A DNA stretch of 64,000 nt, taken from contig JAPEVH010000006.1 of the NCBI GenBank assembly GCA_026645415.1, positions 1-64,000 of the forward strand, read 5' to 3'. Of this stretch, positions 6,699 to 63,323 are shown piece by piece (the first letter of the stretch is position 1; every line of letters starts with the position of its first letter). The translations under genes were made by a program, and so were the position numbers. Under the pieces are notes generated by a model, which saw only the letters and a program-made list of their open reading frames with translations, searched no databases and was not told where the DNA came from. Origin of the DNA: Candidatus Electronema sp. GTDB lineage: Bacteria; Desulfobacterota; Desulfobulbia; Desulfobulbales; Desulfobulbaceae.

Positions 6699-7940
6699 AT
6701 GAAATCTCAAACAACAGATGAAACTGAACAGTGCGGAATAGGCATTGCCATAGAAACCTTTTGTAGATTAGGATTTGCTTTTAGAGAACAACCTGTAAGG
6801 GACTATGGCATAGATGCTCACGCTGAGTTGATTAAATCTGAACAGGCAACTGGTCAAATTTTAGGTATCCAGCTTAAATCAGGCGCAAGCTATTTTTCAG
6901 AGCGAAATGAAACAGGCTTTATATTTCGTACTGATGAAAAACATATAAACTATTGGTGCAACCACGCATTGCCAGTACTGATTTGCCTTTGTGATGTGGA
7001 TACGAGAAATATTTATTGGCAAGTTGTAAACCGAGAAACAGCTATTTCTACTGGTAAAGGATACAAAATTATCGTACCAGTAACGCAAATAATTAACTCA
7101 TCATCTGTCGAGACGTTGCAAAAAATGCTGACTCCTATTGTGCCAGCAACTCGTTATACTATTTTTAAAACAAATGATTCGAGTCATGGTACAGCAAAAC
7201 GATATTCTTTTGCTGTGGTCATCAATGGTACTGCTACAAAGTCAGAAATTGCGTCTATTGTTCGTCAGGTTACGAAAAATGGCATAAAAAGTAGATACTA
7301 CAGAGATCATATAACTGAAAACAAGTATGCTGATTCTGATGCCCAAGTGGTCTGGACATTTATCTATCCAACACCAGAAGATTATCAGCGGGGTGCTTTA
7401 TGGATATGCCGAACCATTTGGATTGACAACAACTTAGATGAACAATTCAGACCAAGCAGCTTTGAAGGTGAGAATATAGGCGATGATATCATCGTAGATT
7501 GGAATACTAATTATCATGAATGGTCAAATTTTTACTCAGAAGGTACTGCGTCAAAAGAGAAGTATTTATCTATAACACTCCCTATTTTTGAAAGCCTAGT
7601 AATTATTTTCGGAAAAATAGTAGAGTTGTTAACGAAATACAAGGCTAACGAAATTGATGAGGAAAAATTTATTCTTTTGACCAAAGAAGACCTAAAACAA
7701 ATTTATGCATTCTATCGAGAAAGTATAGATCTTCCATTCTCAGCCCCGTTTGAATGTCGTGAGGTCGAAGATAACTTTCAGGCTTTTGTCGCTCTTCTTG
7801 ACGATATACGATTATTTTATGATGAAAGCTCCCGTAATAACCGGAGCAAAGAAGATAAACTCTATTTGTCTATTGAACGGTGTCAAGATGCACTAGAAAA
7901 AATGAACAATTTTAAGTATGAATTATCGAAAATAAAATAA
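6699..7940 (+). CDS. DUF4365 domain protein, predicted nuclease-like fold
   Basis: 413 aa. Residues ~10-150 match DUF4365: an acidic-Gly start (ETEQCGIGIAIE), RDYGID ending at D39, then GQILGIQLKSG with Q58-x-K60. The D...QxK arrangement resembles the PD-(D/E)xK restriction-endonuclease core, so nucleic-acid cleavage is plausible but unproven. The C-terminal ~250 residues are mainly helical, without a motif I recognise. It sits alone between a pseudogene and a LytM gene, and its codons are more AT-rich than those of rdgB. DUF4365 proteins occur both as solo genes and in defence loci; no partner is visible here. Confidence 0.65.
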   Translation: MKSQTTDETEQCGIGIAIETFCRLGFAFREQPVRDYGIDAHAELIKSEQATGQILGIQLKSGASYFSERNETGFIFRTDEKHINYWCNHALPVLICLCDVDTRNIYWQVVNRETAISTGKGYKIIVPVTQIINSSSVETLQKMLTPIVPATRYTIFKTNDSSHGTAKRYSFAVVINGTATKSEIASIVRQVTKNGIKSRYYRDHITENKYADSDAQVVWTFIYPTPEDYQRGALWICRTIWIDNNLDEQFRPSSFEGENIGDDIIVDWNTNYHEWSNFYSEGTASKEKYLSITLPIFESLVIIFGKIVELLTKYKANEIDEEKFILLTKEDLKQIYAFYRESIDLPFSAPFECREVEDNFQAFVALLDDIRLFYDESSRNNRSKEDKLYLSIERCQDALEKMNNFKYELSKIK

Positions 7941-60406: not shown

Positions 60407-60437
60407 AATCTTCTTGACTCTGAACGATCTGGTTTAT

Positions 60438-60540
60438 GGTTATTGCTTGACTTGAAAGGGATTACGGAGCAGAATACAGCTCAACAGTCCCGACCGATGG
60501 TTGTTACCACTCTCGGCGCAAAAGAGGAAGACCTTTTCTG
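60438..60540. repeat. Direct repeat copy 1 flanking the NTPase module
   Basis: About 100 bp aligns with 63177-63276: shared blocks include TGCTTGACTTGAAA, GGAGCAGAAT and ATGGTTGTTACCA, with one 5-bp gap and scattered substitutions. It lies just before the three-gene module; the second copy lies just after it. Confidence 0.85.
60447..60475 (+). promoter_or_regulatory. Predicted sigma-70 promoter of the NTPase module
   Basis: TTGACT (60447-60452), 17-bp spacer, CAGAAT (60470-60475). The -35 is near consensus, the -10 matches four of six. Located 116 bp upstream of the first module ATG, inside repeat copy 1. The same boxes and spacing occur in copy 2. Confidence 0.6.
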
Positions 60541-60590: not shown

Positions 60591-60872
60591 ATGAGCGAAA
60601 CCGTGCAAATTGCCCTGATTATTGCCGTGGCGGTTGCTATGGTCTGCGGTATTGCATTTTTTGTGCTGAAGGACAAGCTCCGCAGCGGCAGCCTCAAGAT
60701 CAGCAAAGACTGCATTGAAGGCGGTGTGAAAACCCACGGGCCGTCTGTGACCAAAATCAGCGGTAACACGATCAAGGGCGACGGACACAAATTGACTGCC
60801 CACAACGGCGGTCAGATCGAGCAAAACAAGATTGACGGAAACAAAACCCAGTTAGATAGCATCAATCGCTGA
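60591..60872 (+). CDS. Small membrane protein with Gly/Asn-rich repeats
   Basis: 93 aa from ATG 60591 (GAAGAGCAAA before it). One N-terminal membrane helix, residues ~6-26 (IALIIAVAVAMVCGIAFFVL), then a positively charged boundary and a soluble tail of short repeats: KISKDCIEGG, KISGNTIKGDGHK, EQNKIDGNK. ISGN-x-I-x-G-x-G recurs in the next gene's product at residues 94-103. This looks like a beta-arch or amyloid-like segment, but no family was recognised. The tail should face the cytoplasm if the N-terminus is outside, which is not certain. First gene of the module, 9 bp from the next. Confidence 0.75.
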   Translation: MSETVQIALIIAVAVAMVCGIAFFVLKDKLRSGSLKISKDCIEGGVKTHGPSVTKISGNTIKGDGHKLTAHNGGQIEQNKIDGNKTQLDSINR

Positions 60873-60881
60873 TTCAACAAT

Positions 60882-61643
60882 ATGCTGGCGAATTATCACA
60901 AAGAACGGACTGCGTTTGCCCGCCTGTGGGAGCGGCAGTGCCGGGAGCGCATTCTGCTGCTGCGTGGACAAGTCGGCTACGGCAAGAGTAGTCTGTTGAC
61001 GCATTGCCGCCAAAGCGGGCCGGACAGCATCTTTCCTGTCTTTGTGAACTGCAAGCGGGATGGCATCAATCCCGCCGAGATATTTCGCCTTGCTGCCGTC
61101 CAAGTGGGCCGTGACAGATTCCCCGCTTTCAGCCAGTGTCTGCGCCAGCACAATGTGGAGATCAGCGGCAATCGGATTGAGGGCAGCGGCAACCAGATCA
61201 GCGTGGTGCTCGGCAGCGGCAGCGAGCAGGAGCGCAAAGAGCGGTTAGTCTGGCTGACTGATGCGTGGCTGCGCGACCTCAGCCAGCTTGACCGGCCCCT
61301 GCTTTTGGTTGTGGACACTTACGAAAAGGCCGGTGCTGATCTGCAAAGCTGGCTGCTCAGTGTCCTTGTCCTTCTGCCCCGCGCCTGCAAGCAGCTGCGG
61401 GTGGTGATTGCAGGGCAGGAGGTGCCCGACACCAACACCTGCGAAGAATGGGCCGACTGCTGCTGCGAGCACGAGCTGAAAGGCGTGCCAGAGGCGGAGC
61501 ATTGGCTGCCAGTGATCAAGGATCGGGGCTTCCGGGTGCCGGAAGAACCGCCGCTGATCTTCCTTTCCGGCATCTGCCGCGCTTTGGCAGGCAATCCGGC
61601 CAAGATATTGGAAGTCATAGAAACCTTTCCCCGTCTGCTCTGA
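60882..61643 (+). CDS. STAND-like P-loop NTPase
   Basis: 253 aa. Walker A RGQVGYGKSSLL (G29-K35-S36), Walker B LLLVVDTYEKA (D145, E148), a sensor-1-like strand VVIAGQE and a GNP motif (ALAGNPAKIL, ~237-240), the order seen in AP-ATPase/STAND proteins. Between Walker A and B, residues 93-116 (EISGNRIEGSGNQIS...GSGSEQE) interrupt the domain with a Gly/Asn-rich stretch resembling the tail of the upstream small protein. The winged-helix and sensor parts of a STAND protein are missing and seem to be supplied by the next gene. Soluble. 6 bp before the TPR gene. Confidence 0.75.
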   Translation: MLANYHKERTAFARLWERQCRERILLLRGQVGYGKSSLLTHCRQSGPDSIFPVFVNCKRDGINPAEIFRLAAVQVGRDRFPAFSQCLRQHNVEISGNRIEGSGNQISVVLGSGSEQERKERLVWLTDAWLRDLSQLDRPLLLVVDTYEKAGADLQSWLLSVLVLLPRACKQLRVVIAGQEVPDTNTCEEWADCCCEHELKGVPEAEHWLPVIKDRGFRVPEEPPLIFLSGICRALAGNPAKILEVIETFPRLL

Positions 61644-61649
61644 ATCAGC

Positions 61650-63095
61650 ATGTCCGATTATCAGAAATTTCTCGCCGAATTGCAAGCCTGCGACAATCAG
61701 GATAAACGTGAGCGGCTATCCCTGGACTTCAGTCTTGCCCGGCTGCCAGAGCAGATACAGGCCGCTGTGCAGGCCGCCGCCGTGCCGCGCTTTTTTGACC
61801 GCGCCTTTCTTAACGCCCTGCTTAATCAGCCGTTTGATGAAGAGCAATTTGCCGCGCTTATCGGCTTCTCGTACATTGAGCCGTATCCCGGCGAAGGGCG
61901 ATTCAATGTTCACGAGCGTAGTCGCAAGCTGCTGCAAGAAAAGCTCTGGCAGGAAGAAGAGACGTTGTACCGGGAAATCTCCAGCCGTGCTTTTGTTTAT
62001 TGCGAGAAGCAAGACCAAGACGATACGACGTGGCGGATTGAGACGGTATATCATCAGTTGATTGCCGAGCCGGAGAAGGGGGTGGGTAATCTCAACAACA
62101 CCTGTGTTGACTGGCTGAATCCGCCTCATTTCGCTTATGACAAAGCGGAGAGTCTGCTCCAAGCCGCACATGAACACCAAGAGATGAACCGACTAACTGA
62201 GAAAGTAACATGCTACCTTTTGCTCAATCAAGCGAAGGTGGATATCCGTTATGAGCGCAATCGCGAGGCAAAAGAAGCCTTGCAGAAAATTCGATTGGCC
62301 TCTATTCAAGATGATCATTATCTAAAGCGCGAAGGGCTTCTTTCCCTTGGTCGTGTACATTTTTATCTATCCGAATTCAACGATGCACAGCAGAGTTATG
62401 ATGAGGCTATGCCGCTGTGCCGAGAAAGCAAGGATCGTCTCTACAAGGCTAAGTATCTTCAAAATCTCGGAGATTTGCATCTTCGTCTTTTTGACTTTAA
62501 GAAGGCTCGGAGATATTATGACAAATCCTTGCCGCTGTTTAACCGAATTCAGTTAGAGCAAGCTCACTGTCTTCATGGTATTGGAGAAGTTCTTCTGCAC
62601 CTTTCAAAATTCAAAAAATCTCGGTCTTACTTCAGGAGTGCGCTTAAGTTGTACCAAAAAATAGGCGAACGGATGAGTGAGGCACACTGTATTTTGTCTC
62701 TTGGTAAGGCACATCTTGCTTGTTCTGAACTCCCGGAAGCGCAGCGGCAACTTGAAGAAGCCTTGCAACTTTACCGGAAAATAAATCACCAAAGAGGTGA
62801 AGCCAATTGTCTACAGTCATTTGGTGATTTATCCATAAAGACCGATGAGTTCATTGCTGCCAAGCAATATTATGATGAGGCATTAGATTTGGCTGAACAT
62901 ATCCATTGCCCAGAAGGCGTGGCCGAATGCTGGGAAGGCTTTGCCAAGCTGCATCAGGCGCAAGATCAACTTCAGCAGGCAGAGGAATGCTGGCGCAAGG
63001 CGGCGGAGATGTATCGCAACCTCGCCATGCCTCTGCGGGAAAAGTATTGCTTGGAGCAATTGAGCGGCGGGAACGTGGATCGCAACGGTCTGTAA
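61650..63095 (+). CDS. Winged-helix-like/TPR protein, partner of the NTPase
   Basis: 481 aa. Residues ~25-110 (LARLPEQIQAAVQAAAVP, FDEEQFAALIGFSYIEPYPG, FNVHERSRKLLQE) have the layout of the winged-helix domain that follows the NTPase in STAND proteins. From ~190 to the end there are seven or more TPR-like helix pairs (YLQNLGDLHLRLFDFKKARRYYDKSL, CLQSFGDLSIKTDEFIAAKQYYDEAL), built for ligand or protein recognition. So the ATPase and its sensor are split over two genes. Same strand, 6-bp gap, last gene of the module. Confidence 0.75.
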   Translation: MSDYQKFLAELQACDNQDKRERLSLDFSLARLPEQIQAAVQAAAVPRFFDRAFLNALLNQPFDEEQFAALIGFSYIEPYPGEGRFNVHERSRKLLQEKLWQEEETLYREISSRAFVYCEKQDQDDTTWRIETVYHQLIAEPEKGVGNLNNTCVDWLNPPHFAYDKAESLLQAAHEHQEMNRLTEKVTCYLLLNQAKVDIRYERNREAKEALQKIRLASIQDDHYLKREGLLSLGRVHFYLSEFNDAQQSYDEAMPLCRESKDRLYKAKYLQNLGDLHLRLFDFKKARRYYDKSLPLFNRIQLEQAHCLHGIGEVLLHLSKFKKSRSYFRSALKLYQKIGERMSEAHCILSLGKAHLACSELPEAQRQLEEALQLYRKINHQRGEANCLQSFGDLSIKTDEFIAAKQYYDEALDLAEHIHCPEGVAECWEGFAKLHQAQDQLQQAEECWRKAAEMYRNLAMPLREKYCLEQLSGGNVDRNGL

Positions 63096-63176
63096 AATAC
63101 TGCGGCCTCTGTCTGCTATAATGCTGAGGAACAGAGCAATTTTTACGCCGCTGCTGAGAAGAGCGGGGCAATTATT

Positions 63177-63276
63177 GGTTACTGCTTGACTTGAAAAGGA
63201 TTAGGGAGCAGAATAACAGCTTATCATCGGCAGATGGTTGTTACCATTCTCTGTGCAAAAAAGGACGCATTTTCCA
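63177..63276. repeat. Direct repeat copy 2, upstream of the EF-G-type gene
   Basis: Second copy of the ~100-bp repeat seen at 60438-60540, same orientation. Both start with GGTTA[TC]TGCTTGACTTGAAA. It occupies most of the 228-bp gap between the TPR gene and the EF-G-type gene. Confidence 0.85.
63186..63214 (+). promoter_or_regulatory. Predicted sigma-70 promoter of the EF-G-type gene
   Basis: TTGACT (63186-63191), 17-bp spacer, CAGAAT (63209-63214), identical boxes to the module promoter. It lies 110 bp before the ATG at 63324. Confidence 0.6.
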
Positions 63277-63323
63277 CCGTCTGCCTTAGATCAATATTTC
63301 AGCACCGGCTATCGGAGGCAGAT

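What the first reader, a model, noticed from the sequence alone, without database searches (positions are those of the whole stretch)
60591..63095. Split STAND-like NTPase system whose membrane partner and NTPase share a Gly/Asn-rich motif
Seen: three tightly packed genes for a small single-helix membrane protein, a P-loop NTPase with Walker A, Walker B and a GNP motif, and a winged-helix-like/TPR protein. The small protein (residues 56-78) and the NTPase (residues 94-116, between Walker A and B) both read ISGN-x-I-x-G-x-G-x2-[LI]-[ST]...E-Q. Known: in amyloid-type signalling pairs (HET-S/NWD2, bacterial BASS systems), an effector and its NLR share a short motif that lets the NLR template the effector. 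Inference: the TPR protein senses a signal, the NTPase switches state, and the shared motif couples it to a membrane effector. The motif being inside the NTPase core instead of at its N-terminus is unusual.
Basis: partly seen in the sequence, partly recalled or inferred. Interest (0 to 1): 0.82.

Follow-up and report, generated by a model that had tools for sequence, protein, structure and literature searches.

The report
Split immune-receptor trio with shared repeat
In a few related sediment bacteria, three neighbouring genes look like a split immune receptor plus a tiny membrane protein, joined by a short shared sequence present twice in the membrane protein and once inside the receptor's engine, much as in fungal HET-S cell death but at an unexpected position.

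Summary
The trio and the shared motif are real. In three genomes (of 258 in the class) all three proteins occur together, at three different chromosomal sites. The 93-aa membrane protein carries two tandem motif copies (R1 55-69, R2 75-89, period 20) and the NTPase one (r0 93-107), core I-x-x-N-x-I-x-G-x4-[IL]. A profile built only from the membrane-protein repeats scores r0 in all three NTPases above 3000 shuffled NTPases, but does not find it genome-wide. In register 20, R1 and R2 pair opposite charges 7 times and like charges never; r0 resembles R2 and complements R1. This copies the r1/r2 (effector) and r0 (receptor) layout of fungal HET-S/NWD2. The third protein joins a constant part to sensor repeats that differ completely between genomes. 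Sister species carry a restriction-type helicase in the window's site, flanked by the same promoter-bearing repeats, so defence is likely. Most likely: a split NLR-like switch that triggers a single-helix membrane effector by beta-stacking of shared repeats. Amyloid templating is untested and AlphaFold models were too weak. New variant of amyloid-motif NLR signalling: motif inside the P-loop domain, split receptor, minimal effector.

The parts
60437..60538 (+). Left copy of the fusA-leader direct repeat; contains TTGACT-17-CAGAAT promoter-like site at 60447-60475
60591..60872 (+). Small single-pass membrane protein, 93 aa (putative effector)
60606..60668 (+). Transmembrane helix, about residues 6-26; followed by K/D/K/R, so the C-terminal repeats are inferred to face the cytosol
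   Evidence: sequence; helix 3-31 in the model
60753..60797 (+). Motif copy R1, residues 55-69 KISGNTIKGDGHKLT
60813..60857 (+). Motif copy R2, residues 75-89 QIEQNKIDGNKTQLD; the copy most like the NTPase motif over the three genomes
60882..61643 (+). P-loop NTPase, 253 aa (AAA_16/STAND-like), no repeat domain of its own
60966..60989 (+). Walker A GQVGYGKS (res 29-36)
61158..61202 (+). Motif copy r0, residues 93-107 EISGNRIEGSGNQIS, between Walker A and Walker B
61299..61325 (+). Walker B LLLVVDTYE (res 140-148)
61590..61598 (+). GNP motif (res 237-239)
61650..63095 (+). Winged-helix-like/TPR protein, 481 aa (putative sensor half of a split receptor)
61650..62189 (+). Constant N-terminal part, residues 1-180, 66-69% identical across the three genomes
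62262..63029 (+). TPR array, about residues 205-460; replaced by other repeats in relatives
63176..63321 (+). Right copy of the leader repeat, directly upstream of the EF-G-like gene (start 63324)

Best explanation
A three-gene split NLR-like defence or cell-suicide switch. The winged-helix/repeat protein senses a trigger and, together with the NTPase (encoded separately, but jointly equal to one STAND receptor), oligomerises. Oligomerisation clusters the r0 motifs that protrude from the NTPase between Walker A and Walker B. [quoted passage not shown] Shown here: gene order, co-occurrence, the two-plus-one motif layout, charge complementarity, variable sensors, exchange of payload at the site. 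Inferred: oligomerisation, stacking or templating, membrane damage, anti-phage role.
For: All three parts occur in the same 3 of 258 genomes of the class (constant part and NTPase; small protein in the same 3 of 74 of the family), at three unrelated sites: murJ-fusA, clpX-lon, beside lysS. Two motif copies with period 20 in the small protein and one in the NTPase, all aligning to NTPase 93-107, p=0.0005. A profile from the six membrane-protein repeats scores r0 at 5-8 bits in all three NTPases, against a maximum of 3.4 in 3000 shuffles. R1/R2 charges: 7 opposite, 0 like in register 20, p about 0.005; r0 resembles R2 and is complementary to R1 (4 opposite, 0 like), with fewer D/E/K. In fungi likewise r0 tends to resemble r2, has fewer D/E/K, and r1/r2 form inter-repeat salt bridges (PMC4518210). 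Walker A to B spacing is 111 against 65-93 in most other AAA_16 hits of the genome, so r0 sits in an extra segment. Sensor parts swap type, one with 96% identical repeats, as in fungal NLRs (PMC4986451). Sister species hold an Mrr-ResIII-HA restriction-type helicase in the same repeat-flanked slot.
Against: Only three complete examples, all in one family. The motif is short; the small-protein profile does not recover r0 genome-wide. Both AlphaFold models have mean pLDDT below 60 and show no solenoid. Described amyloid signalling motifs of fungal and bacterial NLRs lie at the N-terminus (PMC7889193, PMC12261475). A decayed distant NTPase fragment has the motif but no partner nearby. No amyloid, toxicity or phage data exist.
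Confidence: 0.47

Rival explanations
1. Static docking, not templating: r0 and R1/R2 form a small mixed beta-solenoid that permanently tethers the NTPase complex to the membrane protein. Activation works by ordinary conformational change and no amyloid forms; the small protein may be anchor, inhibitor or pore.
For: Same sequence evidence. The repeats are short and fairly charged (4-7 charged residues of 15 in R1 and R2), and the membrane protein is already in the membrane by its own helix, so no conversion is needed to send it there.
Against: Clustered r0 fits the receptor-oligomer logic of known systems; the two-copies-versus-one layout is that of templating pairs.
Confidence: 0.25
2. The likeness is convergent: r0 is a conserved structural or regulatory element of this NTPase family and the small protein has an unrelated Asn/Gly beta-repeat; the trio works by other contacts.
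For: r0 is conserved in a 35%-identical decayed NTPase without a partner nearby; r0 columns are only mildly enriched in invariant positions (p=0.037); genome-wide recovery fails.
Against: Profile and HMM tests against shuffles, and the matching charge pattern.
Confidence: 0.18
3. A non-defence regulator (MalT-like STAND signalling of a metabolite or envelope stress through a membrane anchor).
For: Weak MalT and SARP/TPR similarities; operon behind a copy of the fusA promoter-like site.
Against: No DNA-binding output domain recognised; patchy presence (3 of 258 genomes), different sites, swapped sensors, and neighbours from toxin-antitoxin or restriction families.
Confidence: 0.1

Closest known systems
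Fungal HET-S/NWD2 and HELLF/FNT1 (HRAM motifs)
   Same: Adjacent effector and NTPase genes; about 20-residue motif twice in the membrane-acting effector and once in the receptor; r0 closest to R2, fewer D/E/K in r0, opposite charges between stacked repeats; repeat-type sensor, sometimes with highly identical units
   Different: r0 lies inside the P-loop domain, not at the N-terminus; receptor split into two proteins; effector is one transmembrane helix plus repeats, with no HeLo domain; the sequence motif is different; bacterial
Bacterial amyloid signalling sequences (BASS1-10) with Bell-domain effectors
   Same: Bacterial NLR-type gene next to a small membrane-associated protein sharing a short Asn/Gly-rich motif
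   Different: BASS motifs sit at NLR N-termini and at Bell C-termini; here no Bell domain was recognised and the motif is internal. BASS profiles were not available to test
Bacterial STAND/NLR anti-phage systems (Avs, bNACHT)
   Same: P-loop STAND-like NTPase, winged-helix-like part and alpha-repeat sensor
   Different: Those are single polypeptides with a fused effector (own knowledge); no PADLOC model covers this trio (only TPR and marginal P-loop hits)
RHIM / PP / BASS3 motif
   Same: Right half G-x-x-N-x-[IL] is present in r0 and some R copies; RHIM can lie centrally in a protein (PMC7889193)
   Different: Core G-[IV]-Q-[IV]-G is absent

Membership tests
STAND / NLR-like NTPase | P-loop with Walker A, Walker B and a downstream GxP-type motif | tested here: met
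   (AAA_16 just above cut-off; Walker A, Walker B and GNP kept in three genomes)
STAND / NLR-like NTPase | Winged helix followed by superstructure-forming repeats in the same chain as the NTPase | tested here: not met
   They are encoded by a separate gene in all three genomes; repeats present; winged helix judged from position and sequence only, no Pfam match
NLR-amyloid-motif pair (HET-S/NWD2, BASS) | Short motif shared by an effector and the adjacent NTPase, beyond chance | tested here: met
NLR-amyloid-motif pair (HET-S/NWD2, BASS) | Motif at the N-terminus of the NLR and at the C-terminus of the effector | tested here: not met
   C-terminal in the small protein, but internal (residues 93-107) in the NTPase
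NLR-amyloid-motif pair (HET-S/NWD2, BASS) | Motif forms amyloid and r0 templates it | not testable with these tools
   needs peptides; AlphaFold models uninformative
HRAM (HET-s-related motif) | Two pseudo-repeats stacking in register with complementary charges | tested here: inconclusive
   7 opposite / 0 like charges in register 20, p about 0.005, but only three sequences
BASS1-10 / Bell | Bell-domain effector and match to one of ten BASS profiles | not tested
   profiles not held; Pfam gives no hit to the small protein
RHIM-type motif | Core G-[IV]-Q-[IV]-G | tested here: not met
   absent from all nine motif copies (definition from PMC7885112)

The most novel reading that the evidence does not exclude
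The amyloid-type seed of an NLR can sit inside the nucleotide-binding domain, in a segment between Walker A and Walker B, so that nucleotide state and ring formation directly expose and line up the seed, and a split receptor drives a 93-aa one-helix effector. I know of no described signalling-motif receptor with this architecture.
Probability: 0.3. Interest if true: 0.84.

Novelty: new variant of a known kind. Interest (0 to 1): 0.66.

Why it matters
If right, it extends prion-like receptor-to-effector signalling to a rare bacterial system in which the receptor is split, the effector is reduced to one helix plus two repeats, and the seed lies in the ATPase core. Surveys that take motifs from NLR N-termini would miss it. 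Its three small, separable proteins make the question of how nucleotide state controls seeding directly testable. Its family contains the multicellular cable bacteria, in line with the proposed link between such systems and multicellularity (whether the window genome is a cable bacterium was not shown).

Tried and rejected
Relatives in viral contigs (NTPase, NTPase core, small protein), phages and plasmids: none. Broader phylum sample of 395 genomes: only one decayed fragment in G304, and no better copy in that genome's class. Search for other motif carriers in the genomes: none beyond the trio (one search finds the trio by construction). Solved-structure sequence search of the NTPase: nothing; Foldseek on a weak model: no hit at E<=0.001 and not interpretable. 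AlphaFold of the small protein: only the transmembrane helix is trusted. A third degenerate repeat at residues 36-50 (KISKDCIEGGVKTHG) was considered but its spacing differs between genomes, so it is not claimed. RHIM membership rejected (core missing). A frameshift as the cause of the NTPase/WH split was rejected: the split is at the same point in three genomes. Identity of G060 as a cable bacterium could not be settled from published genome sizes.

Full report
What is there. Three tightly packed genes lie between murJ (minus strand) and an EF-G-like gene: a 93-aa single-pass membrane protein (60591-60872), a 253-aa P-loop NTPase (60882-61643) and a 481-aa protein with a conserved N-terminal part and TPRs (61650-63095). 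Pfam assigns the NTPase to AAA_16/AAA_22, with sub-threshold NACHT/STAND matches, and the third protein to TPR families. PADLOC has no model for the trio. The own genome has one copy.

Relatives. The NTPase has full-length relatives only in two other genomes of the family: G057, same genus (record JAABPV010000044.1, titled Desulfobulbaceae bacterium S01.Bin068; contig length and position agree with L006), 76% identity, and G060, another genus, 62%. The small protein is in the same three of 74 family genomes; the constant part of the third protein and the NTPase core are in the same three of 258 class genomes. The three loci lie at unrelated places: murJ-fusA, clpX-lon and beside lysS (gene names read from the sequences). 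The NTPase and the winged-helix/repeat protein are separate genes in all three, so the split is real.

The motif. Position-by-position comparison of the two families puts the best windows at one NTPase position, residues 93-107 (EISGNRIEGSGNQIS; EIRDNQIEGNSNQIS in G057; EIRDNQIEGNSNQIN in G060), matched by two places in the small protein exactly 20 residues apart: 75-89 (QIEQNKIDGNKTQLD, score 31.1) and 55-69 (KISGNTIKGDGHKLT, score 26.3); column shuffles reach the top score with p=0.0005, and the internal repeat has p=0.0125. As a test without circularity, a profile from the six small-protein repeats alone picks r0 in each of the three NTPases (best-domain 7.8, 5.9, 5.3 bits; full-sequence 8.8, 6.9, 6.5), while the best of 3000 shuffled NTPases reached 3.4 and the repeat proteins nothing positive. 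The signal is too weak to stand out over a whole genome. Pairwise, only the window pair is clear (p<0.001); the G057 and G060 own pairs have p 0.07 and 0.04.

Stacking signature. If R1 and R2 stack in register, like charges should be avoided. In register 20 the three genomes give 7 opposite and 0 like pairs. No other register within 9 residues gives so many opposite pairs (the nearest is 6 opposite and 1 like at register 22), every genome has zero like pairs with its own R2, and five of the six mixed combinations of R1 and R2 introduce like pairs (permutation p about 0.005). r0 has 4 opposite/0 like against R1 but 3/4 against R2, so r0 behaves as an R2 that caps R1, and it has fewer D/E/K than R2 in every genome and no more than R1. 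Similar relations are described for fungal HET-s-related motifs: r0 often closer to r2, depleted in D/E/K, r1/r2 salt bridges (PMC4518210; PMC8086366). I read this as convergence on the same kind of device, not as descent.

Where r0 sits. The segment from Walker A to Walker B is 111 residues against 65-93 in most other AAA_16-scoring proteins of the genome (two likely ABC-type proteins show 122-124), so r0 lies in extra sequence. The AlphaFold model (mean pLDDT 55, three sequences) shows short strands at 94-95 and 98-99 between two helices, apart from the central strands; this is weak evidence against a buried core strand. A decayed relative in G304 (same phylum, about 35% identity) keeps V-x-I-x-x-N-x3-G-x2-N-Q-I-x-V-x-L at this point, without a recognisable partner on its contig. 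So r0 is old in this NTPase family, and a role within the NTPase cannot be excluded.

The sensor half. The first ~180 residues of the third protein are 66-69% identical across genomes, but what follows differs in kind: diverged TPRs in the window, 28-aa alpha-type repeats in G057 (59% between units), and seven 40-aa TPRs with 96% identity between units in G060. Highly identical repeats in receptors with fast-changing specificity are known from fungal NLRs (PMC4986451).

The site. The trio is flanked by two copies of the leader of the EF-G gene, each with TTGACT-17-CAGAAT. In G054 and G057 the same slot, with the same two leader copies, holds a gene with Mrr_cat_2, ResIII helicase and helicase-associated domains, which matches restriction enzyme models; in G055 the two leader copies lie on separate contigs. 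The slot is thus an exchange site whose other known cargo looks like restriction. At the other two loci, PIN-domain genes and a HicB-like antitoxin gene lie near the trio.

Mechanism. I favour a split NLR-like switch: the repeat protein senses, the NTPase oligomerises, clustered r0 arches seed stacking of R1/R2 on the cytosolic tail of the membrane protein, and its helices gather and harm the membrane. Steps after gene content and sequence pattern are inference. Static docking through a mixed beta-solenoid is the strongest rival.

Membership. It works like HET-S/NWD2 and BASS/Bell pairs, but it is not filed as one: the N-terminal position of the receptor motif, the single-chain receptor and the Bell or HeLo domain are absent or unrecognised, and amyloid formation is untested. 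Published surveys took motifs from NLR N-termini and effector C-termini (PMC12261475), and a review singles out RHIM as a motif that might, unlike the others, work in a central position (PMC7889193).

Noticed in passing
L049 2466-5834 (G054), L050 2506-6080 (G057), window 60437-60538 and 63176-63321: A slot between murJ and the EF-G-like gene carries either the trio or a restriction-type helicase, always between two copies of the EF-G gene leader with its promoter-like site: an exchange site that duplicates a housekeeping promoter.
   Followed up: partly
L007 11100-11190 and 11649-11739: A 91-bp stretch at the end of lysS is duplicated (93% identity) around a HicB-like antitoxin gene next to the G060 trio, again a cargo gene flanked by copies of a housekeeping gene's end.
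   Followed up: partly
L007 8230-9111: Seven nearly identical 120-bp units (97%) encode the TPR sensor of G060, suggesting recent repeat expansion or concerted evolution.
   Followed up: partly
L006 7954-8310: Beyond the stop codon of the G057 sensor gene, 105-nt repeats continue, perhaps remnants of a longer sensor or a reservoir.
   Followed up: no
L013 5463-5987 minus strand (G304): Decayed fragment of a distant NTPase with the motif VQINHNWLAGINNQISVAL kept at the same position.
   Followed up: partly
window 6699-7940: 413-aa ORF that from its sequence resembles DUF4365-type (restriction-like) proteins; not searched.
   Followed up: no
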